This document shows, one piece after another, positions 23,324 to 36,003 of a stretch of 64,000 nucleotides of DNA. This DNA comes from Clostridium sp. CX1. GTDB taxonomy: Bacteria; Bacillota; Clostridia; Clostridiales; Clostridiaceae. Positions within the stretch are counted from its first letter, which is position 1. Every line of letters starts with the position of its first letter. The DNA is taken from NCBI RefSeq assembly GCF_025398335.1, contig NZ_JAODOO010000005.1, forward strand, positions 1 to 64,000. Reading direction: 5' to 3'. Position numbers and translations under genes: made by a program. Under the pieces are notes generated by a model. The model was not told the DNA's origin. It saw only the letters and a list, made by a program, of their open reading frames with translations, and made no database searches.

Positions 23324-24859
<1,536 letters not shown>

Positions 24860-24878
24860 TTAGCCGTACCACAATAAC

Positions 24879-24949
24879 TTCACTCATAGTCAGGAATTTA
24901 CGGCTCCCGGTAGATACTCCCTGCCATATTCAGGGTATATACGAGTAAA
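24879..24949 (-). ncRNA. Purine riboswitch aptamer, guanine type
   Basis: On the minus strand P1 is TTTACTC / GAGTGAA. The core has the conserved loops and junction: CTCGTATATACCC, GAATATGG, CTACCGGG, GCCGTAAATTCC, then GACTATG. The junction base equivalent to C74 is C (GACTATG rather than GATTATG), predicting guanine or hypoxanthine binding, not adenine. The 3' P1 strand and the next bases (24868-24883) can pair at 15 of 16 positions with the terminator 5' strand (24843-24858). Ligand binding should therefore favour the terminator, an OFF switch for guaBA. Confidence 0.95.
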
Positions 24950-24996
24950 TTTAAAATCATTCAATTTTTCTTTCTTTCAAATTCATTGTTTACATT

Positions 24997-25044: not shown

Positions 25045-25800
25045 TTAGAATATGCCATACCAAAGGAGTATTTTGTCTCCGAAAAACACGGTAAAGACTG
25101 CTGCCAGGGCAATAAAAGGCCCAAAGGGAATATAGTCTTTTCTATTTTTTTTCTTTAAAGCTATAAGTATTAAGCTAATTACTGAGCCGAAGATAAAGGA
25201 GAAAAACAACATAACTATGGTTAGTTTTAATCCTAGGAATAACCCGCTGTAAAGACATATCTCTGCATCTCCCCAGCCCATGCCTTTGGTAAGGACTATT
25301 ATTAGGGCTATAACTCCCCCACCTAGTAACCCTCCATATATATACTGTTTGAAATCGCTATATAAATATCCACTGGCTGCTATAAATGATAGAGCAAGTA
25401 CAACTCCTACAATGGTTGTACTAAAATACACATCTGTAGTATCCAAATCAATAATTCCAACTACAATGAGAATGGTTATGAAAGCTATATATTTTAATGT
25501 TGTTAGGGTTAGTCCATATTTTATATATATTACAAGATACAATACTCCTGTTATAAATTCAATTACTGGATACCTTATAGATATCTTTTCTCCGCAGTGT
25601 CTGCATTTGCCTTTTAGTAAGAATATGTAGCTAAATATAGGAACTAGATCGTACCATTTTATTTCTCTGTCACAGTTAGTACAGTGAGATGGTGGATACG
25701 CTATAGATTGTCCTTTTGGTATTCTGTATATGCAGACGTTTAGGAAGCTTCCTATTATGAAGCCGAATATCATTATAAATATTCTAATTAATGTGTTCAT
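25045..25800 (-). CDS. pilD: Type IV prepilin peptidase
   Basis: This polytopic aspartyl protease (251 aa from ATG 25800) cleaves prepilin leader peptides and N-methylates the new N-terminus. The cytoplasmic loop has two CxxC pairs (CTNCDRE and CRHCGEK), typical of bifunctional PilD. The catalytic Asp motifs are IDLDTTD and GMGWGDAE, and several hydrophobic segments follow. The apparent ATG 12 nt upstream lies in the ribosome binding site GGAGGG, so the start at 25800 is preferred. It is the last gene of the pilus locus, 236 bp after the last minor pilin. Confidence 0.95.
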   Translation of the reverse strand: MNTLIRIFIMIFGFIIGSFLNVCIYRIPKGQSIAYPPSHCTNCDREIKWYDLVPIFSYIFLLKGKCRHCGEKISIRYPVIEFITGVLYLVIYIKYGLTLTTLKYIAFITILIVVGIIDLDTTDVYFSTTIVGVVLALSFIAASGYLYSDFKQYIYGGLLGGGVIALIIVLTKGMGWGDAEICLYSGLFLGLKLTIVMLFFSFIFGSVISLILIALKKKNRKDYIPFGPFIALAAVFTVFFGDKILLWYGIF

Positions 25801-26036
25801 TTTTCCCTCCATAAGTTTCTACTATATTATCATTTTACCATAAAATCATTAATCTAATTCATAGGCATAAAAATAAAAACAGAAGCAACTTATACTCCTA
25901 TTTTTACTCATAATCTAATGGTATTTTATCCCCCATACTTAGCCAGTTTATTGTTTTTCCTCAACTTACACTACTTTTCTCTGCTCACAAATATCTTGTC
26001 TTATTTATCCTTAAATCTTTATAGATTTTTTAAGCC

Positions 26037-26528
26037 CTAACCCCTATAAACTTTCTTAGATTTTATAGAATAAGATGCATAGTTATAATTTATATTATCA
26101 TTACTTTTATAAATAACAGATACATTTGCAACTATAACATATCCCTGAGAACCATAGCTGCCAGAGGAATAAAGATCAAAAGTATACTCCTTCGTATAAG
26201 TTATTGGGTTACCTATCTGAGTAACTTTATTGGTGATTTCATTCATAAGAGTAACATTATAAAATGACATGTTATCACCATAAAGACCACCAGCGTTATG
26301 AAGATTAGTCATTATAGTTCCGCTAGATACATCACAATTTTTGCTATTAATATAATTTATAGAATCATAAATCCCTGCTTCAGCACTATAGTAAGCTTTA
26401 GTTCTATTAGATGTATCTGAGGCTAATCTATTATTTTTAATACTAGCATCTAGTATTAATGCTGCTAGTACAAAGGTTAACATCATAATAATAATAACAA
26501 TCAAAAGAGCAGAACCTTTCTTTTTCAT
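26037..26528 (-). CDS. PilX/GspK-like minor pilin
   Basis: This 163-aa protein has the short basic leader MKKKG, then SALLIVIIIMMLTFVLAALI, the hydrophobic N-terminal helix. It lacks the glutamate at mature position +5 that true pilins carry. Loss of E5 is characteristic of GspK/PilX-type initiators at the tip of the pilus. The rest (RTKAYYSAEAGIYDSINYI, then beta strands) matches the PilX N-terminal family. RBS GGAGGT. It follows two other minor pilins. Confidence 0.85.
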   Translation of the reverse strand: MKKKGSALLIVIIIMMLTFVLAALILDASIKNNRLASDTSNRTKAYYSAEAGIYDSINYINSKNCDVSSGTIMTNLHNAGGLYGDNMSFYNVTLMNEITNKVTQIGNPITYTKEYTFDLYSSGSYGSQGYVIVANVSVIYKSNDNINYNYASYSIKSKKVYRG

Positions 26529-26590: not shown

Positions 26591-27067
26591 CTATTTATTT
26601 ATATTCACAGCAGTAGAGCTTGTGCTCTTAGTATCTCCCTCTGAAGCTGAAATAGTAATCAGCATCAGTTCATTTTCGTCATTTGAACCTCTTTCAATTT
26701 TAATTGAGTCTATATTAGAACACTGGTTACCACTGCTGTCACTTAGAATCTTATTTGTACTATTATAATATAATATTATATCGGTATTTGAAGTATTTAC
26801 TACGGTTGAATCTAGGTCTATTATAACCTTTCCTCCGGAAAGCACTTTAGTTCCATTTACACTTATATTAGTAAAGCTGTAATTTCTAATTTGATCAGTT
26901 ATCATATTTAAAGCTTTATTTCCATTATACTGAATATCTATATTGTTATTAAAATTAAAGGACTGTTTTACTTGAGAAAAAAAAGTCTGGTAAAGATACA
27001 TAGAGAATATGGTAAAAACCGCTATAGCTATCATTAGTTCAATTAATGTAAATCCTTTTTTCTTCAT
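26591..27067 (-). CDS. Minor pilin (PilW/GspJ-like)
   Basis: This 158-aa prepilin has leader MKKKG and then FTLIELMIAIAVFTIFSMYL; mature F+1 and E+5 are intact. The C-terminal half is a polar beta domain. A GTG three codons upstream overlaps the ribosome binding site AAGGTGAAG, so the ATG at 27067 is the likely start. Position and size suggest the PilW/GspJ role in priming pilus assembly. Confidence 0.85.
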   Translation of the reverse strand: MKKKGFTLIELMIAIAVFTIFSMYLYQTFFSQVKQSFNFNNNIDIQYNGNKALNMITDQIRNYSFTNISVNGTKVLSGGKVIIDLDSTVVNTSNTDIILYYNSTNKILSDSSGNQCSNIDSIKIERGSNDENELMLITISASEGDTKSTSSTAVNINK

Positions 27068-27077
27068 GAACTTCACC

Positions 27078-27440
27078 TTACTTTTTTAAAAAATGTGATG
27101 TTAACACTACTTCATTATTTTTATCAGCAATATTTTTACGTACTCTTATAGTCACTTCTAAAAGTTTTGGTGGCCCTTCACTGACAGTTTTAGATTGCAC
27201 CACAACATAATAGTTATCAACTTTCTCATAGTCTCCATTATTATAGTTACCAACGTCTGTAGTAGCGGTTTTAAATTTTTCTAAAAGTTTTTGTGCTTCC
27301 ATCGTCATATTTTGTCTCTCAATTTGTAGCCTTATATTTTTATTTGCTGTAATATTGATTCTCACAATAAAAATAGACAATATCAAAAATATGGTTGTGG
27401 CAATCATGATTTCTATATAAGTAAAACCTTCTTTTCTCAT
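27078..27440 (-). CDS. Minor pilin (PilV/GspI-like)
   Basis: This 120-aa prepilin has leader MRKEG and mature start FTYIEIMIATTIFLILSIFI, with E+5 present. The globular part is short and ends in a beta-rich segment with a basic tail. Size and order (before PilW-like and PilX-like) fit the PilV/GspI minor pilin. It is separated by 167 bp from the large pilin fusion gene upstream. Confidence 0.85.
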   Translation of the reverse strand: MRKEGFTYIEIMIATTIFLILSIFIVRINITANKNIRLQIERQNMTMEAQKLLEKFKTATTDVGNYNNGDYEKVDNYYVVVQSKTVSEGPPKLLEVTIRVRKNIADKNNEVVLTSHFLKK

Positions 27441-27607: not shown

Positions 27608-29584
27608 TTATCGAAAATATTTTTCAAAACAATTATTGATCTTTCTCTTAATATTTTCAGTATATTGATTACTACTTAACTGTGTCATAGTAAAGTGAGC
27701 ATTTGTATCAGCATTTTTAGTGATTATAGCCGAATTATTAAATGTTATACTATTAATATTATTAGCAAACGTCATCTTACCTGTGCAGTAGATTATGAAA
27801 TTATTAAATACTAAATCTTTAGTTCCCCAATTATTTATACTTCCTTCAATAGAACAATCTCCATCAATTATAAGCAATTTATAAATATTAGGATTTATAT
27901 TTTCACTTGTAGGTGCTAGTGCTTGCTTTAATGCATTATTATCTGATCCTCGAATTACACGAAAAGCTAAATCATTATAAGTTGTAACGTCATAAGCATT
28001 GCTATGTACAATACCACTTTTGGTAGTCTTAATTTGATTAGGTGTAGTAATACGTGTAATAGGTGTTGGCTGCACTGCTGGTTCACTTGGCTCTTGATGA
28101 GCAGATACAAGTACTGGATTTGGGTATATTGAATTACCTTTAATGAAATTATTTATATAAGTCTTTAAGCTAGTTGTATAAATACTAGCATTTTTGTAGT
28201 CAAACGTATTAGCCTCTATATACGTATCCCCAAAGGCTACATTCTTGTTTATACTTACTGTATTTCCTTTAAGGTAAGTGCCGGCATTTATATTTATACT
28301 TTGACCATTATTACCAAAATCTAAATTATTTGTTGAAATCATTGTTATTGGACCCTTTGAATCTAATTTATAGTAGAAATCCATATCGTTTTTAGATTGT
28401 ATATATGCCGAACTATTTCTATCTAAATTAAAATTCCTACCTCTATTAGTGAATTCAACATTTCCTTCAGATATTGTAGAAAACTTACTATTTGTTAAGC
28501 TTATATCACTGGAAAAGATAGCCTCATTATCACTCTCAATTTGAACATTACCATTGCTAAAACTTGTATTAATACTTGAATTACCAAAGTTAACTTTATT
28601 ATTAGCCAAGATAGAAACATTGTTATTTGATTGAAAATTACTATTTAAATCAATATTATATGCTTGAAAATTTACTATTCCATTAACGATTTGATTCTGA
28701 CCACTCCCATTCCCAATATTAATACTATTTTGCCCTCCAACACCTAAAATTGAAAAATTACCATTAATATCTGAATTCTGTTTAAGTGTAATCTGTTGGC
28801 CTTGTAAATATACAGAACCTGTAATGCTCATTGTGGTGCTATTACCTAAATTAACTTGAGTACTACTATCACCTAGTACATTAAAACAGTTCGTAGCTAA
28901 TAAATCTGCAATTGTATTACCGTTAGTGTCTTCTCCGTCATCTCCTCCATCACCTGGTGTAACACCTCCCTTAACAATAGGCGGTGTTGGTGGAAATTTA
29001 ATAATATATATGTTAACCATTTCTCCGCTGTTATCCACACCATATAAGACATATCCCGTACTATAAACAACAATTACTACATTTCCTTTAAAGTCTACCC
29101 CTTTAGGCATCATTGAATTATTAATTACAGAATTATTATCTGAAGGCAAATTACCAGTGCTATAATACACTAAAACCGATGAAGTCGAAGAGGGGCTTTT
29201 ATTTGTTATATTGCCTTGAGAATATACAATAGAATTATTGCTAGTAAAAGGATTTGTCAAGGCATTACTACCTGAAAAATTAGAAGTCATATCTGGTCCA
29301 ATCCCAATATAACTAGTATTATCATTATTATTGCTTTTCAGAATACTATCAAGAGCCTGTTCCTGTGTCTTTCCGCCGATAGTGATCACTTTATACTGAA
29401 TACCATCTTTTCCCGATCTATTCTCAAGATAACTTCTAACTAACATCACATTAGTAGTTACATTTTTATTTTTTGATTGAAGCTTAATAGCTCCTACCTT
29501 TGGTACTAATACTACAGACAGCAAAGCTATAATCGCCAAAACTATCATAATCTCTATTAGTGTAAATCCTCTTTTTCTAACCAC
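27608..29584 (-). CDS. Giant pilin fused to a beta-solenoid-like domain (putative pilus-tip adhesin)
   Basis: The 658-aa product begins with a class III-type prepilin signal (MVRKRG, then FTLIEIMIVLAIIALLSVVL; E11 is +5). Residues 1-195 align in order with the pilin at 35094-35594, sharing SSVL, a hydrophobic VVIVV strand and YGVD. A Pro/Gly/Asp linker follows (about 196-225, including GDGGDDGEDTNGN). About 240-500 is Asn/Ser-rich with repeating short strands (for example VNFQAYNIDLNSNF, NNLDFGNNGQSININAGTYL), typical of a beta-helix. A Pro-rich spacer (about 505-520) and a C-terminal beta domain end in a basic tail. It starts at GTG after GGGGGGAG. An adhesin or tip role is inferred. Confidence 0.8.
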   Translation of the reverse strand: MVRKRGFTLIEIMIVLAIIALLSVVLVPKVGAIKLQSKNKNVTTNVMLVRSYLENRSGKDGIQYKVITIGGKTQEQALDSILKSNNNDNTSYIGIGPDMTSNFSGSNALTNPFTSNNSIVYSQGNITNKSPSSTSSVLVYYSTGNLPSDNNSVINNSMMPKGVDFKGNVVIVVYSTGYVLYGVDNSGEMVNIYIIKFPPTPPIVKGGVTPGDGGDDGEDTNGNTIADLLATNCFNVLGDSSTQVNLGNSTTMSITGSVYLQGQQITLKQNSDINGNFSILGVGGQNSINIGNGSGQNQIVNGIVNFQAYNIDLNSNFQSNNNVSILANNKVNFGNSSINTSFSNGNVQIESDNEAIFSSDISLTNSKFSTISEGNVEFTNRGRNFNLDRNSSAYIQSKNDMDFYYKLDSKGPITMISTNNLDFGNNGQSININAGTYLKGNTVSINKNVAFGDTYIEANTFDYKNASIYTTSLKTYINNFIKGNSIYPNPVLVSAHQEPSEPAVQPTPITRITTPNQIKTTKSGIVHSNAYDVTTYNDLAFRVIRGSDNNALKQALAPTSENINPNIYKLLIIDGDCSIEGSINNWGTKDLVFNNFIIYCTGKMTFANNINSITFNNSAIITKNADTNAHFTMTQLSSNQYTENIKRKINNCFEKYFR

Positions 29585-29612: not shown

Positions 29613-30431
29613 CTACTTAAACATCTCTGAAAAACTTCCAAACCCTTTATCATTCTCATCAAAGAATGGATAACTTTTAAACTGTTCATAACTCTTATTA
29701 CTAATCTGTATGTACTGAACAAAAGTTATATTCGCCATCATCTCATAGAGGTTAGTCATAGTCACTCCATTTCCTCCTTGTACAGATGGTTCATTTTGTG
29801 CATTTTGTACATTGTTTGGTATTTTAACATCCTGAGAGTTGCCATTAATGTTGTTATTTTGATGACCTTCTTCACTTTGCTGCATTTCAGCTGGAGCAAG
29901 AACTATATTTTTAACATTAAGCTTTCTATCAGTTATACTATTAAGGTTATTTAACATATTACCTATATTTTGCTTGTTTCCTTTTATAGACAAATCTATA
30001 GTAAGACTTACCAATACTAAATCTGAGTTTTTTTCTGAATTATTATTGTTATTAGTATCAGTATTTTCATTATTATTTTCTGTTTCAGAAGTTGCTTCCA
30101 GTTGAAACTTAATACTATCTCCAGTTACTCCATAAAGCCTGCAAAAGTTGTAAAAGTCATAAATAAGCTTTGGAGTATCAATTTCCCTAGGAGCCATATC
30201 ATCTAATTTTTCACTTTCAACTTTGAGATTAGAAACATTCTCTTTTAGGCTGTGTATACTAGCTTTTTCTTTTTCTAAGGAGTTCAGTTTATTTAACTTT
30301 TGTTCATAGCTTTTCTTTAAATCTATTATTTTCTGCAATCGAGGATTTATATAATAAGTATATATACTATAATTAGCTATAAATGCTAGTAGGCAAATTA
30401 AAATTATAATTTGTCTTTTATTTTTGTCCAT
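29613..30431 (-). CDS. pilO: PilO-like type IV pilus alignment protein
   Basis: This 272-aa protein has one N-terminal transmembrane helix (about 8-26), a coiled coil (about 30-75) and a ferredoxin-like C-terminal domain (SIKGNKQNIGNMLNNLNSI). The domain is interrupted by an Asn/Glu/Gln-rich low-complexity insertion near 118-135 and another near 185-215. It should partner the PilN part of the upstream fusion protein. ATG overlaps the upstream stop by one base (TAATG). Confidence 0.85.
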   Translation of the reverse strand: MDKNKRQIIILICLLAFIANYSIYTYYINPRLQKIIDLKKSYEQKLNKLNSLEKEKASIHSLKENVSNLKVESEKLDDMAPREIDTPKLIYDFYNFCRLYGVTGDSIKFQLEATSETENNNENTDTNNNNNSEKNSDLVLVSLTIDLSIKGNKQNIGNMLNNLNSITDRKLNVKNIVLAPAEMQQSEEGHQNNNINGNSQDVKIPNNVQNAQNEPSVQGGNGVTMTNLYEMMANITFVQYIQISNKSYEQFKSYPFFDENDKGFGSFSEMFK

Positions 30432-31900
30432 TATTTAGCCTCCGATTCCTTTATCTTCAGATTAAAGCTTGCTTCAGACACTGAATCATCAAGTTTTACC
30501 TCATCTACTTCAACAGGTTCAAATATATTCATTTCATTTATAGCTATGACAAGTCTTGCTACATCAATCGTACTATTTTGTATATTGAATATAACAATTG
30601 CATCTGCATTATTAAGCGTTATGGATTTTATAGTTACCTTTTTAGGCAGGCCTTTTTGCAATGTTTCTATTATAGCCACATAATCGAATTGTTCATTTGC
30701 TACTTGATTTATATACTTAATTTTGGTCTCATAAAAATTCTTCTGATTATTTAAATCACTTATAGTTTTTTCTACATAACTTAAAGACGCTATTTTATTT
30801 TCTATTTCAGCTGTATTATATTTTCTTTCTTTCTGAAAAAAATATATACTAGTGGCTGATGTCCAGATAATAGTAATTAGTAAGGCAATTGCTGCTACCT
30901 TTATTAATATATTTTTATCATTAGTAATGCTTTTACTTTTATTCTTTTCAAGTCTTCTTGCAAAATTAATACTGTATTCTCTTTTTCTGAAAGGTTTAAT
31001 AGAGTTTGCTATAATGTCTGCAAAAATATTTATATTCTCATTTACCTTTGAAGTAATTTTTGTACCTATTCCCTCAATTCCAACAGTAGGCTCTATACCA
31101 AAGCTGTTTTTAATAGCTTGATATAATTCTCTGTTATCCCAAAACTCTCCTGTAATAAATATATTCTGCACCCTATTCCCAAAGTGTCTTGTATCATAAA
31201 AGTTAAGAAAATATCCAAAGTTCTCTACCATATCTTGAAAGCTGTTTTCCTCACTATGACTTTCTGATAGTATATTAGAATATAAAAATAACTTATTATT
31301 ATCAAATATAGTTACATTACTTTTTTCTTTATCTGTATCTAATATTGCAATACTTGTATTTCTATAATCATCAACTATATTTTTAATAACTTGAGGATAT
31401 ATCCTTATATTTTTTACAATAAGACCACAAATGTTTATAAACTCCAATATATTATCTAACTTATACTTGGGTACTGCAGCTAATATTATGTGAAACCTGC
31501 CTTTTTTATCCTTGTTTTCGGCTTTTTCTTTTTCAATAATTTCAAAGTCATAATAGTATTCACCAAGATTTACTGCAAAATAATCATTTATATTGTTTTT
31601 TATAAAGCTTTCAAGTTCTTTTCTTTTCATTATAGGCGTTTCTATATTTCTTGTTATAATACCATCTACTGAAAGAACTAAGTCTACTTCCTTAGTTTTT
31701 ACCCTGCTTTTATTACGAATAGTCTTTATTATATTTGAATTTTCATCACTGTTATAGGATATATCAACAGTATTTATAACAGTATGTGGTTTAATTGTTG
31801 CTACTCTTAAAAGCTTTACTTCCCCTATTCTTTTAGCTATCGCAACTATGTCTATACTGTTATCTTTTATACTAAATATAAGCTTTCTATTAGAACTCAA
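30431..31900 (-). CDS. pilMN: PilM-PilN fusion protein
   Basis: This 489-aa protein joins an actin-like PilM domain (about 1-305: FSIKDNSIDIVAI at 9-21, SVDG at 77-80, TGEFWDN at 250-256) to a PilN-like part. Residues 311-316 (INFARR) stand where PilN carries its PilM-binding INLLP motif, followed by a transmembrane helix (about 331-355), a coiled coil and a ferredoxin-like domain. In most bacteria PilM and PilN are separate proteins held together by that motif; here both are one polypeptide. Start is TTG behind AGGGGAG. Confidence 0.88.
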   Translation of the reverse strand: MSSNRKLIFSIKDNSIDIVAIAKRIGEVKLLRVATIKPHTVINTVDISYNSDENSNIIKTIRNKSRVKTKEVDLVLSVDGIITRNIETPIMKRKELESFIKNNINDYFAVNLGEYYYDFEIIEKEKAENKDKKGRFHIILAAVPKYKLDNILEFINICGLIVKNIRIYPQVIKNIVDDYRNTSIAILDTDKEKSNVTIFDNNKLFLYSNILSESHSEENSFQDMVENFGYFLNFYDTRHFGNRVQNIFITGEFWDNRELYQAIKNSFGIEPTVGIEGIGTKITSKVNENINIFADIIANSIKPFRKREYSINFARRLEKNKSKSITNDKNILIKVAAIALLITIIWTSATSIYFFQKERKYNTAEIENKIASLSYVEKTISDLNNQKNFYETKIKYINQVANEQFDYVAIIETLQKGLPKKVTIKSITLNNADAIVIFNIQNSTIDVARLVIAINEMNIFEPVEVDEVKLDDSVSEASFNLKIKESEAK

Positions 31901-32007: not shown

Positions 32008-33204
32008 TTACTGTAACCCCTGAGACATTTGCATAATTGGCAATGTTACTGCAACGATAACTGTTCCTACTATGAGTCCTATTAACAGAGTAAGCACAGG
32101 TTCTACTAAAGATGTAAGTCTGCTTATACTTGTTTCAACTCTTATATCATATCTATCTGCCAAGCTAAAAAGCATCTCTTCAAGCTTTCCTGTTTCTTCT
32201 CCAACTCTTATCATTTGAATTACAAGAGGTTCAAACATCTTTTCATTTTCTAATGAATCTGCAATTTTATTTCCATTTATTATCTCACGCTTTACATTCT
32301 CAATTTTTGTTGCTGCAAACTCATTTCCTAAAATATATTTTAGGTTATCTAGTATTTCAAGCATAGGTACTGCTGATTTTAAAAATATACCCATAGTTCT
32401 TGTAAATCTTGCTGTCATTATATTCATTTTAGCATCCCTAATAATAGGTAGTTTAAGTAGTATTTTATCATAACTATATCTAACTTTAGGTAAAGTTTTT
32501 GCATAAATAACAAGTATAATTATTGCAAAGATAAGTATAGTAATTATAAGCATATTATTATTAATATAGTCCATGCATATTAACAAAAGCTTTGTAATAG
32601 CAGGAAGATTTGTATTATCTTTAAACAATTCCTCAACTTCCCCAAAAATATAGAAATTAAAAAATGCCATCATGGCTATAGCTACAACTAAAATTAGTAC
32701 TGGATATATAGATGCACTTTTTATCTTAGTCTTTACACTTGCCTCTTTTTTATAGTAGCTTTCCATATTAAAAAGAATAGTATCAATTTCTCCACTTAAT
32801 TCTCCGGTTCTTACCATATCCGTTAATAGCCTTGGAAAAACTCCTGCGGCTTCCATAGCAGCTGTAAGAGTTCTTCCCTCTCTTACTCTTGTAAGTACCC
32901 CTTGAATAACCTTTTTCATATTTTTCTTTTTAGTTTGTTCATATAATATTTCAAGACCTCTTACAATGCTGACACCGGAGTTTACAATTATAGCAATTTG
33001 TCCACAAAAATCTGATAAATTTTCATCACTTAAGGTCATTTTGAAAAGTTTCAGCTGAAATATGTCGTTCTTTTCTTTAATGTATATAAGTTTTAGTCCC
33101 CTATCCCTTAATCTTTCTTCTGCAATATCCCCATCATCTTCTTCGATAACACCCTTAATTATATTAAAGTTTTCATCATAAGCTTTATATAGATACTTTT
33201 TCAT
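32008..33204 (-). CDS. pilC: PilC/GspF inner-membrane platform protein
   Basis: This 398-aa protein has two tandem GspF domains. The first helical bundle (about 60-170) is followed by a hydrophobic pair near 165-235, and the second bundle (about 255-370) by a C-terminal membrane helix (TLLIGLIVGTVIVAVTLPIM). Signature segments are FPRLLTDMVRTGELSG and FEPLVIQMIRVGEETGKLEEML. It forms the membrane platform on which PilB acts. It starts 9 bp after the pilB stop. Confidence 0.95.
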   Translation of the reverse strand: MKKYLYKAYDENFNIIKGVIEEDDGDIAEERLRDRGLKLIYIKEKNDIFQLKLFKMTLSDENLSDFCGQIAIIVNSGVSIVRGLEILYEQTKKKNMKKVIQGVLTRVREGRTLTAAMEAAGVFPRLLTDMVRTGELSGEIDTILFNMESYYKKEASVKTKIKSASIYPVLILVVAIAMMAFFNFYIFGEVEELFKDNTNLPAITKLLLICMDYINNNMLIITILIFAIIILVIYAKTLPKVRYSYDKILLKLPIIRDAKMNIMTARFTRTMGIFLKSAVPMLEILDNLKYILGNEFAATKIENVKREIINGNKIADSLENEKMFEPLVIQMIRVGEETGKLEEMLFSLADRYDIRVETSISRLTSLVEPVLTLLIGLIVGTVIVAVTLPIMQMSQGLQ

Positions 33205-33213
33205 AGTATACTC

Positions 33214-34887
33214 CTAATATCCATAAGTTACCCTAAGCATTTCTTCTACAGTAGTAATTCCACTTAAAACCTTTTTCTTACAGGAATCCTTCAAAAGAAT
33301 CATACCTTTTTCTACTGCCTTTTCTTCAATCTCCATCTCACTAGCCTTATTATCTATAAGTATTCTTATACCTTTATCCATAGTCATTATTTCAAATACT
33401 GCAATTCTTCCTTTATATCCTGTATTATTACACATACTGCAGCCTTTTCCCTTTTTTATTTTAACAGGATGATCTAAGCCAAGTATTTTTGTTTCTCTCT
33501 CATCACTTAAATATTCCTCAGCGCAATTAGGACATATTCTTCTAACTAATCTTTGAGCTATAACTCCACCCAAGGTGGAAGAAAGTAAAAATGGCTCAAT
33601 TCCCATATCTAGTAATCTTGTTATTGTCCCCGCTGCATTATTTGTATGAACTGTAGAAAAAACTAAGTGTCCTGTAAGGGCGGACCTTATTGAAATTTCT
33701 GCAGTTTCATTATCTCTTGTTTCTCCTACTAGTATAATATCTGGGTCCTGTCTTAATATACTTCTAAGACCGCTTGCAAAGCCAAAACCAATCTTTGTAT
33801 TAACTTGCATTTGGTTTATTCCTTTTAGGTTATACTCTACAGGATCTTCTATGGTTATTATATTTTTATATTCGTCATTTAAAACATTAAGTATTGAATA
33901 TAAGGTGGTAGTTTTACCACTTCCTGTAGGTCCTGATACCAATATTATACCATAAGGCTTCGTGATAATATCGATTACTTTTTCATATTCTTCAACTCCA
34001 AGTCCAATTTTCTCAATACTTACTGAAAAATTACTCTTGTCTAAGATTCTCATAACAACTTTTTCCCCAGTAATAGTAGGAATAATTGATACTCTTAAGT
34101 CAATATTTTTTTGTTTTGCTCTATAAGCTATTCTTCCGTCCTGAGGGAGCCTTGTTTCTGCAATATTCAAGTTAGCCATAATCTTTATTCTACTAAGTAC
34201 TGGAGTTAACATCCCAATATCTGATCTCATAATCTCTCTGAGTACACCGTCTACCCTAAATCTAACTCGCAGTTCCTTTTCTTCAGGCTCTATATGAATA
34301 TCTGAAGCTCCATAAAGAATTGCATTTTCTACAATGCTATTGATAAACTTTATAATTGGAGCTGCATTTTCATCCTCTATTTCTTTTTCTTGAATATCTG
34401 ATGATTTAATTCCATATATCTTATTATAATTTTGAGCTGCTTCCTGTGCTCTGCTCTTTCCATAGTATTTTTCGATATTTTCTAGTATACTTTCTCTTAG
34501 TGAAATAGAAGGTTTCACAGCATATCCCGTAGCCACTCTTATATCCTCAATGGCAAAGTAGTTTAAAGGGTCACTCATAGCCACATGTAATATTCCATTT
34601 ATGATATCCACAGGAATTGCTTCATCTTTTCTTGCAATACTTTCAGGAATAACGTCTATGACATCTTGTCTTATGTTAAGGTTGTCCAAGTTTATTGACG
34701 GTATTCCAAGCTGGCTTTTAACAGCTTCTATTATCTGTTCATTAGTAGTAAAGCCCTTACTTACAAGTATTTCACCAAGTTTTTCACCTGTGTTCTTTTG
34801 TAGAGTAAGGACCTTTTGTAGAATTTCTTCTGTTATAACATTTGCATCTATTAAAATTTCTCCGAGACGTTTTCTTACTCTTGTCAT
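33214..34887 (-). CDS. pilB: PilB/GspE assembly ATPase with MshEN-like N-terminal domain
   Basis: This hexameric extension motor (557 aa) has Walker A GPTGSGKTTT, an Asp box, Walker B ILVGE, a His box, and a tetra-Cys zinc site (CPNC and CSMC). The N-terminus (residues about 4-55) carries two copies of RLG/KLG-x2-L-x9-12-I/L-x3-L/V-x2-Q (RLGEILIDANVITEEILQ, then KLGEILVSKGFTTNEQII). This is the pattern of c-di-GMP-binding MshEN domains. The ATG at 34887 has GGGAAG upstream; an ATG five codons earlier has no ribosome binding site. No PilT retraction ATPase is in this locus. Confidence 0.95.
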   Translation of the reverse strand: MTRVRKRLGEILIDANVITEEILQKVLTLQKNTGEKLGEILVSKGFTTNEQIIEAVKSQLGIPSINLDNLNIRQDVIDVIPESIARKDEAIPVDIINGILHVAMSDPLNYFAIEDIRVATGYAVKPSISLRESILENIEKYYGKSRAQEAAQNYNKIYGIKSSDIQEKEIEDENAAPIIKFINSIVENAILYGASDIHIEPEEKELRVRFRVDGVLREIMRSDIGMLTPVLSRIKIMANLNIAETRLPQDGRIAYRAKQKNIDLRVSIIPTITGEKVVMRILDKSNFSVSIEKIGLGVEEYEKVIDIITKPYGIILVSGPTGSGKTTTLYSILNVLNDEYKNIITIEDPVEYNLKGINQMQVNTKIGFGFASGLRSILRQDPDIILVGETRDNETAEISIRSALTGHLVFSTVHTNNAAGTITRLLDMGIEPFLLSSTLGGVIAQRLVRRICPNCAEEYLSDERETKILGLDHPVKIKKGKGCSMCNNTGYKGRIAVFEIMTMDKGIRILIDNKASEMEIEEKAVEKGMILLKDSCKKKVLSGITTVEEMLRVTYGY

Positions 34888-35060
34888 TACTTCACTTCCC
34901 ATATTATTTTAATATTTATTATGGTTGCTAGTTATTTTTTACATAAGAATGATCTTTTTTAATATTGTATCTGAAATTGTAAGTATCACAATATTAAAAA
35001 ACCTGTACCTTTATTCAAGCTTTTATAGAAATCAGCCAGATTAACTCATAGTTACAAAAA

Positions 35061-35093: not shown

Positions 35094-35594
35094 TTATTTA
35101 CCTATTTCGTAATTATTCTTTAACACGTTACCATCCATATCTACACCATAAACTTTATATTTATTACTTTCAACAACAATAATAACTGCTCCATTATACT
35201 CATGATCACCTGCAATCACAGAATCTCCTGGCATGCTATTCATTATTAAAACTGAAGATTTCGCTGGCGCATTAGTAGACGTCAAATCCGGAATACCTGT
35301 TCCCTCATTTGCTGGATTAATAATTTGTTCACTCTTGTCAGTATCTAAGGTACTAGTACTTTTAAAATTTTTCTCCATAGCATCTTGTAAATTCTCTTTT
35401 GACATAAAATTGTCTCCAGTCTTTGTTTCTAAATAAGCCCTAACAGTATTCATGTTAGTTGTAACCCCTGACACCTTCGCATTTTTTTTGAATATTCCTG
35501 ACTTAGGTATAAGTACAACTGCTAGTATAGCTATAATAGCTAATACTATCATAAGCTCAATCAAGGTAAAACCTTTTTTCTTAGTAATGTCCAT
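35094..35594 (-). CDS. pilA: Type IV pilin (probable major pilin)
   Basis: This 166-aa prepilin has an 8-residue leader (MDITKKKG) and mature start FTLIELMIVLAIIAILAVVL, with E at +5. The globular domain has no disulphide pair and contains SSVLIMNSMPG, then GAVIIVVESNKYKVYGVD. The strong RBS AGGAGG, first position in the operon, a terminator right after it and a c-di-GMP riboswitch upstream all point to the main structural subunit. It is homologous to the N-terminal 195 residues of the giant pilin at 27608-29584. Confidence 0.9.
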   Translation of the reverse strand: MDITKKKGFTLIELMIVLAIIAILAVVLIPKSGIFKKNAKVSGVTTNMNTVRAYLETKTGDNFMSKENLQDAMEKNFKSTSTLDTDKSEQIINPANEGTGIPDLTSTNAPAKSSVLIMNSMPGDSVIAGDHEYNGAVIIVVESNKYKVYGVDMDGNVLKNNYEIGK

Positions 35595-35871: not shown

Positions 35872-35915
35872 AAAACAAACCCCTATATTCATAAACACCT
35901 TTACGAATACAGGGG
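35872..35915 (-). terminator. Riboswitch-controlled terminator upstream of pilA
   Basis: CCCCTGTATTC (35905-35915) pairs with GAATATAGGGG (35880-35890) and is followed by TTTGTTTT. The 5' strand includes the 3' strand of aptamer helix P1, so aptamer folding and termination compete. Confidence 0.85.
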
Positions 35916-35981
35916 TGGTTGCATCACTAACTCCATACATCCAAGATGCCCAAATAAAGCATGTACTTCACAGTTTCCCTA
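35910..35981 (-). ncRNA. c-di-GMP-II riboswitch aptamer
   Basis: On the minus strand the conserved class II features appear in order: TAGGGAAAC, TGTGAAGTACATGC, TTTATTTGGGCATCTTGG, a hairpin with GGAGTTAGT, then GATGCAACC and CCCTG closing P1. This parallels the C. acetobutylicum class II aptamer, which has GGAAAC, AUUGGGCAC, GAGUUAGU and GUGCAACC at the matching places. P1 (TAGGG / CCCTG) overlaps the terminator 5' strand, so c-di-GMP should block termination: an ON switch for the pilus operon. Confidence 0.9.
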
Positions 35982-36003
35982 AACTATTCATTTTATTGAT
36001 TTA

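What the first reader, a model, noticed from the sequence alone, without database searches (positions are those of the whole stretch)
27608..29584. Pilin fused to a large beta-solenoid-like domain: a putative pilus-tip adhesin
Seen: residues 1-195 are a complete pilin module homologous to the major pilin in the same locus, followed by a Pro/Gly/Asp linker and about 430 further residues of Asn/Ser-rich repeated strands. Inference: the pilin gene was duplicated and acquired a beta-helix passenger, giving a subunit too large to pack along the shaft and so likely placed at the tip as adhesin or sensor. The Asp/Asn-rich linker (GDGGDDGEDTNGN) could bind calcium. Co-occurrence with a GspK-like minor pilin fits a tip complex.
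Basis: partly seen in the sequence, partly recalled or inferred. Interest (0 to 1): 0.75.

Follow-up and report, generated by a model that had tools for sequence, protein, structure and literature searches.

The report
Pilus subunit carrying a swappable adhesin
A Clostridium-like bacterium makes a type IV pilus subunit with a large beta-helix grafted onto it that resembles known cellulose-binding adhesins, and relatives carry different grafts on the same subunit, so these bacteria may change what their pili stick to by swapping one module.

The parts
27608..29584 (-). large modular pilin, 658 aa
28994..29584 (-). pilin module, residues 1-197, paralogue of PilA
   Evidence: N_methyl 2.9e-7; 35% to PilA, E 7e-23; conserved in 11 homologues. 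Structure not resolved: pLDDT mostly under 50
28919..28993 (-). Pro/Gly/Asp-rich linker, residues 198-222
28040..28918 (-). beta-solenoid, residues 223-515
   Evidence: AlphaFold2, residues 231-490 mostly pLDDT 80-96; 43-residue internal repeat; fold matches
27611..27997 (-). C-terminal cap domain, residues 530-658, part of it homologous to the end of K-type pilins in other T4P operons
27677..27862 (-). mosaic segment, residues about 575-636
27078..27440 (-). I-like minor pilin, 120 aa
   Evidence: weak ComGE/GspI-type hits, below cut-offs; Glu5 present
26591..27076 (-). J-like minor pilin, 161 aa
   Evidence: gspJ 5.3e-6, below the curated cut-off
26037..26528 (-). K-like minor pilin, 163 aa, PilX_N
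   Evidence: PF14341 3.9e-6, over cut-off; lacks Glu5
25045..25812 (-). prepilin peptidase PilD
   Evidence: PF06750 1.5e-36, PF01478 8.9e-12
29613..30431 (-). PilO-like protein, 272 aa
   Evidence: PF04350 0.003, below cut-off; position
30431..31900 (-). PilM-PilN fusion, 489 aa
   Evidence: PilM_2 1.5e-7; PilN 0.043, below cut-off
32008..33204 (-). PilC platform protein, 398 aa (named by eye)
   Evidence: homologues in 9 of the 11 other loci compared
33214..34902 (-). PilB extension ATPase, 562 aa (named by eye)
   Evidence: 178 bits to the pilT_fam model, below its cut-off
35094..35594 (-). PilA, probable major pilin, 166 aa
   Evidence: N_methyl 2.5e-9
35904..35987 (-). c-di-GMP-II riboswitch upstream of pilA
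   Evidence: Rfam RF01786, 69.1 bits, E 2.1e-13

Best explanation
It is a modular minor pilin. A copy of the PilA pilin module, encoded directly before the I-J-K minor pilins, polymerises by its N-terminal helix and displays, on a linker, a beta-solenoid with a C-terminal cap that has the overall fold of a tapirin. The most likely function is adhesion of the retractile pilus to an insoluble polysaccharide (cellulose, another plant glucan or a microbial glycan), switched on with the operon when c-di-GMP is high. The pilin module is a constant socket and the passenger is exchanged between species; the C-terminal segment is exchanged on its own and probably tunes specificity. Shown by computation: architecture, predicted fold, different passengers on homologous modules, mosaic segment, riboswitch, a PilT gene in the genome. 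Inferred: polysaccharide ligand, placement at or near the tip, the sense of riboswitch control, linker flexibility, the segment as specificity determinant.
Confidence: 0.55

Rival explanations
1. An intercalated pilin: it is built into the shaft now and then in place of PilA, the passenger standing out sideways on the linker, as reported for C. difficile PilJ.
For: alpha-1 is on average 52% identical to PilA and 11-25% to K, I, J; Glu5 kept; 14-33-residue linkers in the 11 homologues. PilJ (two pilin folds) is described as intercalated (PMC9556784, PMC13234629, passages), and the relatives' triple-pilin form recalls it.
Against: Gene directly before I-J-K in 10 of 11 loci; the passenger's relatives sit on K-type pilins, the tip-capping kind by published models; each of the 22 pilin clusters read has one bulky minor pilin, as expected if one place can hold it, though most clusters were chosen for having one.
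Confidence: 0.33
2. A DNA receptor like ComZ of Thermus: the solenoid binds extracellular DNA for uptake or biofilm.
For: ComZ is a pilin with a beta-solenoid that binds DNA (PMC6561018, passages); C. difficile PilJ binds DNA (PMC9556784, passages).
Against: ComZ's solenoid is inserted in the pilin sheet, here it is C-terminal after a linker; the best fold matches listed are tapirins, though a fold missing from those lists is not excluded; a relative has a CBM56 passenger.
Confidence: 0.12
3. Structural only: a priming or capping subunit whose bulk matters and not a ligand.
For: One bulky minor pilin per cluster, on the pilin before I-J-K, on J or on K, suggests a required bulky cap.
Against: A cap would not need three unrelated passengers nor a mosaic segment; CBM56 has a binding role by family name.
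Confidence: 0.1
4. The mosaic C-terminus reflects escape from phages or antibodies rather than ligand choice.
For: Exchange limited to an end segment and shared across genera.
Against: No phage or host data; synonymous sites in the shared segments are diverged (6 of 13 and 5 of 11 fourfold sites alike; small counts), so the exchanges between genera look old.
Confidence: 0.15

Closest known systems
Modular type IV pilins (S. sanguinis PilB, PilC; PMC8179133, PMC9934059, passages)
   Same: Pilin module plus a grafted C-terminal module on a linker; PilC's module is a lectin; modular pilins reported as widespread (over 1,200 proteins, 264 architectures)
   Different: Module is a beta-solenoid with tapirin-like fold that hits no Pfam family above cut-off; homologous pilin modules seen with three passengers; mosaic C-terminus
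Tapirins of Caldicellulosiruptor (PDB 4wa0, 6n2b, 6n2c)
   Different: Here fused to a pilin module; no sequence similarity found; cellulose binding not tested. Whether tapirins have a pilin-like N-terminus was not examined
ComZ of Thermus thermophilus (PMC6561018, passages)
   Same: Pilin with a large beta-solenoid, argued by its authors to sit at the tip
   Different: ComZ solenoid is inserted between the last strands of the pilin; here it follows the pilin; ComZ binds DNA
C. difficile PilJ (PMC9556784, passages)
   Same: PilA-like N-terminus with an extra domain; like the triple-pilin form in relatives
   Different: Extra domain of PilJ is a second pilin fold; the window's is a solenoid; PilJ gene lies outside the main pilus cluster (recalled)
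K-type (PilX/GspK-like by position) pilins of other T4P operons in the family
   Same: Homologous passenger, full length in L102 (32%), end domain in L103-L107
   Different: Passenger on a different pilin type

Membership tests
[quoted passage not shown]
   PF07963 2.9e-7, TIGR02532 1.7e-7, both over cut-off
Modular type IV pilin | Pilin module with alpha-1 and a pilin head | tested here: inconclusive
   Sequence homology to PilA; model pLDDT mostly under 50; separate fold job not finished
Modular type IV pilin | Extra folded C-terminal module joined by a linker | tested here: met
Modular type IV pilin | Module has a direct role in a pilus function | not testable with these tools
   needs bench work
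Tapirin | Beta-helix fold of the C-terminal domain | tested here: met
Tapirin | Sequence homology to tapirins | tested here: inconclusive
   profiles A8 and A9 find no tapirin chain in the PDB at E up to 10; few rows in the profiles
Tapirin | Binds microcrystalline cellulose | not testable with these tools
   none
ComZ-type pilin | Solenoid inserted within the pilin beta-sheet | tested here: not met
   The passenger follows the end of the pilin module
PilJ-type dual pilin | Second domain is a pilin fold | tested here: not met
   Window passenger is a solenoid; pilin-like repeats occur in L059, L065-L067
H subunit of an HIJK tip complex | Gene directly before I, J, K | tested here: met
   same order in 9 of the 10 other large-pilin loci, not in L060
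H subunit of an HIJK tip complex | Located at the pilus tip | not testable with these tools
   none

The most novel reading that the evidence does not exclude
A type IV pilin fused to a tapirin-fold polysaccharide adhesin, built as a two-level exchange system: a constant pilin socket that takes whole passengers, and a C-terminal segment shuffled between species on its own. The same adhesin fold moves between the pilin before I-J-K and the K-type pilin of different pilus operons, and stand-alone tapirins may be former pilus-tip modules of this kind.
Probability: 0.35. Interest if true: 0.75.

Novelty: new variant of a known kind. Interest (0 to 1): 0.6.

Why it matters
How type IV pili choose what to bind is poorly known. 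Here homologous pilin modules carry three passengers within one family, two of them in the same operon slot within single genera, and one passenger has the fold of a known cellulose adhesin. That makes pilus ligand choice testable with natural variants. It also links the tapirin fold to pilus subunits, which would bear on how anaerobic bacteria hold on to plant matter.

Tried and rejected
Calcium-binding linker: unsupported (one pattern tried). Pfam gave no family above its cut-off for the solenoid passengers of window, L058, L061 and L064, nor for whole L063 beyond N_methyl (L062 not scanned). hhalign of A8 against two pilins that match DUF7305 gave probabilities under 1%. PDB sequence search of the full protein gave ten pilin or pseudopilin matches at the N-terminus and one phospholipase at E 0.55. 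Hydrophobicity autocorrelation showed no significant period (p 0.26); only the profile self-alignment did. The solenoid passenger was found in 1 of 391 genomes of a class sample, the window's own (E up to 1e-5 and 1e-3). In the window's genome the passenger profile has one match at E up to 0.01, so no second copy; a short silent segment could be missed. Recent transfer of the mosaic segment between genera: not supported, since synonymous sites are diverged (small counts). A scan of the held library for 'tapirin' with 'pilin' gave one unrelated paper; words printed with an accent cannot be searched. The two primary tapirin papers and the C. difficile riboswitch-pilus paper are not held; what I say of them beyond PMC7142884 and reference lists is recalled.

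Full report
Observation. The ORF at 27608-29584(-) encodes 658 aa from a GTG start. It lies in a type IV pilus (T4P) gene cluster on the - strand: pilA 35094-35594, pilB, pilC, pilMN, pilO-like, this gene, then I-, J- and K-like minor pilins and pilD (pilB and pilC named by eye). Residues 1-26 match N_methyl, and residues 3-187 align with PilA at 35% identity, E 7e-23. A 25-residue linker and 436 further residues follow.

Relatives and passengers. With the pilin module as query, 14 of 206 family genomes match at E up to 1e-12, and 11 of 206 hold a large frame of 451-671 aa; a search of 225 genomes of the order returns the same 11 large ones. Read out, the 11 carry three passengers: the solenoid (window, L058, L061-L064), two further pilin-head repeats without, by eye, a second hydrophobic helix (L059, L065, L066, L067; self-alignment probability 97%), and in L060 CHB_HEX_C_1 (2.1e-26, two stretches) plus CBM_56 (6.3e-11). 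The large gene stands directly before I-J-K in 10 of the 11; in L060 it stands before pilA. Both genera with more than one member have two types: g1 has the window and L058 against L059, g2 has L061-L064 against L065. In a tree of PilB+PilC+PilMN (10 rows) the solenoid carriers are not one clade (AU p 2.3e-6); for the two triple-pilin rows p is 0.085. In the pilin-module tree (11 rows) one clade is rejected for the triple-pilin carriers (p 0.023) and not for the solenoid carriers (p 0.11). I take this as at least one exchange or transfer; the direction is not known.

Same fold on another pilin. The passenger profile hits 12 of 206 family genomes at E up to 0.01. Besides the six carriers these are pilins of a second kind of T4P operon that I call K-type by position and N-terminus: L102 end to end (E 2.5e-71; 32% identity), and only the C-terminal part in L103-L107 (E 8.9e-7 to 4.8e-11; hhalign probability 98% for L103 and 95% for L105, the two tried of these five). 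Pfam PilX_N matches only L103 of the six, below its cut-off, so the K label is an inference. A class sample gave 1 of 391, the window's own.

One bulky minor pilin per cluster. PilMN of this type is found in 16 of 206 family genomes. I read the loci of all 16 by hand, and other clusters, 22 in all: window, L058-L067, L102-L107, L110-L114. By my assignment each has one minor pilin of at least 321 aa and the rest at most 279 aa. The large one is the PilA-like one of this report (11), K-type (7: L102-L107, L114) or J-type (4: L110-L113; a J or ComGF model is among the best hits for L110 and L111, while L112 rests on position). Most loci had been chosen for a large pilin or a solenoid; the five of L110-L114 had not. 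DUF7305 is on the J-type of L110 and the K-type of L114. S. sanguinis has two modular pilins (PMC9934059, passages), so this is no general rule.

Mosaic C-terminus. Sliding identity among the six solenoid proteins and a permutation scan of 15 pairs, both directions, 5000 shuffles each: window-L063 peak 0.89 at residues 591-636 (0 of 5000; mean 0.53); L058-L061 peak 0.91 at 564-615 (p 0.0002; mean 0.61); L061-L062 trough 0.44 at 578-627 (0 of 5000; mean 0.82). No other of the 30 scans is below p 0.02. Window and L058 are genus g1, L061, L062 and L063 g2. DNA identity in residues 566-625 is 79% and 82% for the two alike pairs against 62% and 65% in residues 200-565. Fourfold sites in residues 575-636 are alike in 6 of 13 (window-L063), 5 of 11 (L058-L061) and 3 of 7 (L061-L062, against 100 of 126 in residues 222-574). 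I read this as old sequence classes shared across genera, with a replacement in L061 or L062 since they parted. Caveat: shuffling columns ignores local conservation. Protein identity in 566-625 against 200-565 also rises for the five pairs with L064 (by 3 to 21 points), which may be local conservation; the seven remaining pairs change by -17 to +8 points.

Regulation and context. A c-di-GMP-II riboswitch lies at 35904-35987(-) upstream of pilA. It is also found in 6 of 8 of L058-L065 (not L059, L060) and in L102, and not in L066, L067 or L107; L066 and L067 do not hold the head of the operon. The loci L103-L106 and L110-L114 were not scanned. That c-di-GMP raises pilus expression through such a switch in C. 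difficile is recalled. A PilT is encoded elsewhere in the genome (481.8 bits, over cut-off).

Tip or shaft. For the tip: position before I-J-K, homology of the passenger to K-type pilins, published arguments about bulky modules (PMC8179133, PMC9934059, PMC6561018, passages). For the shaft: over six loci the first 53 mature residues are on average 52% identical to PilA, 23% to I, 25% to J and 11% to K, and PilJ of C. difficile is described as intercalated (PMC9556784, PMC13234629, passages); PMC8179133 also says a shaft location cannot be excluded if the linker is flexible enough. I put the tip somewhat ahead.

Verdict. A real, well-supported modular pilin. The class is known. In the held library I found no description of a tapirin-like fold on a pilin, of three passengers on one pilin module or of the mosaic end (search listings; that library lacks most subscription journals).

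Noticed in passing
window 35904-35987 (-): c-di-GMP-II riboswitch upstream of pilA; of 12 related loci scanned, 7 have one (L058, L061-L065, L102).
   Followed up: yes
window 24867-24964 (-): Purine riboswitch upstream of the IMP dehydrogenase gene (23324-24778, named by eye); also in L058 and L102.
   Followed up: no
L059, L065, L066, L067: Triple-pilin proteins: a PilA-like module followed by two pilin-head-like repeats, in the same place before I-J-K.
   Followed up: partly
L060:6567-7904: Pilin carrying chitobiase-C-terminal repeats and a CBM56; gene order of its operon is rearranged.
   Followed up: partly
L110:951-2192, L111:1497-2771, L112:13461-15032, L113:2175-3140: Minor pilins taken as J-type with large extra C-terminal regions, one with DUF7305; L111 also has, by eye, an Asp/Asn-rich calcium-loop-like stretch.
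   Followed up: partly
L063:6782-9316: pilC and pilMN appear split into two frames each in this genome; described only.
   Followed up: no
G000:C34:64316-66918: A second pilin-like frame and a PilB/PilT-like ATPase in the window's genome, perhaps another T4P or competence locus.
   Followed up: no
L061 and L062, residues about 100-165 and 455-490 (window numbering) of the large pilin: Two further stretches of lowered identity between these otherwise closely alike proteins.
   Followed up: no
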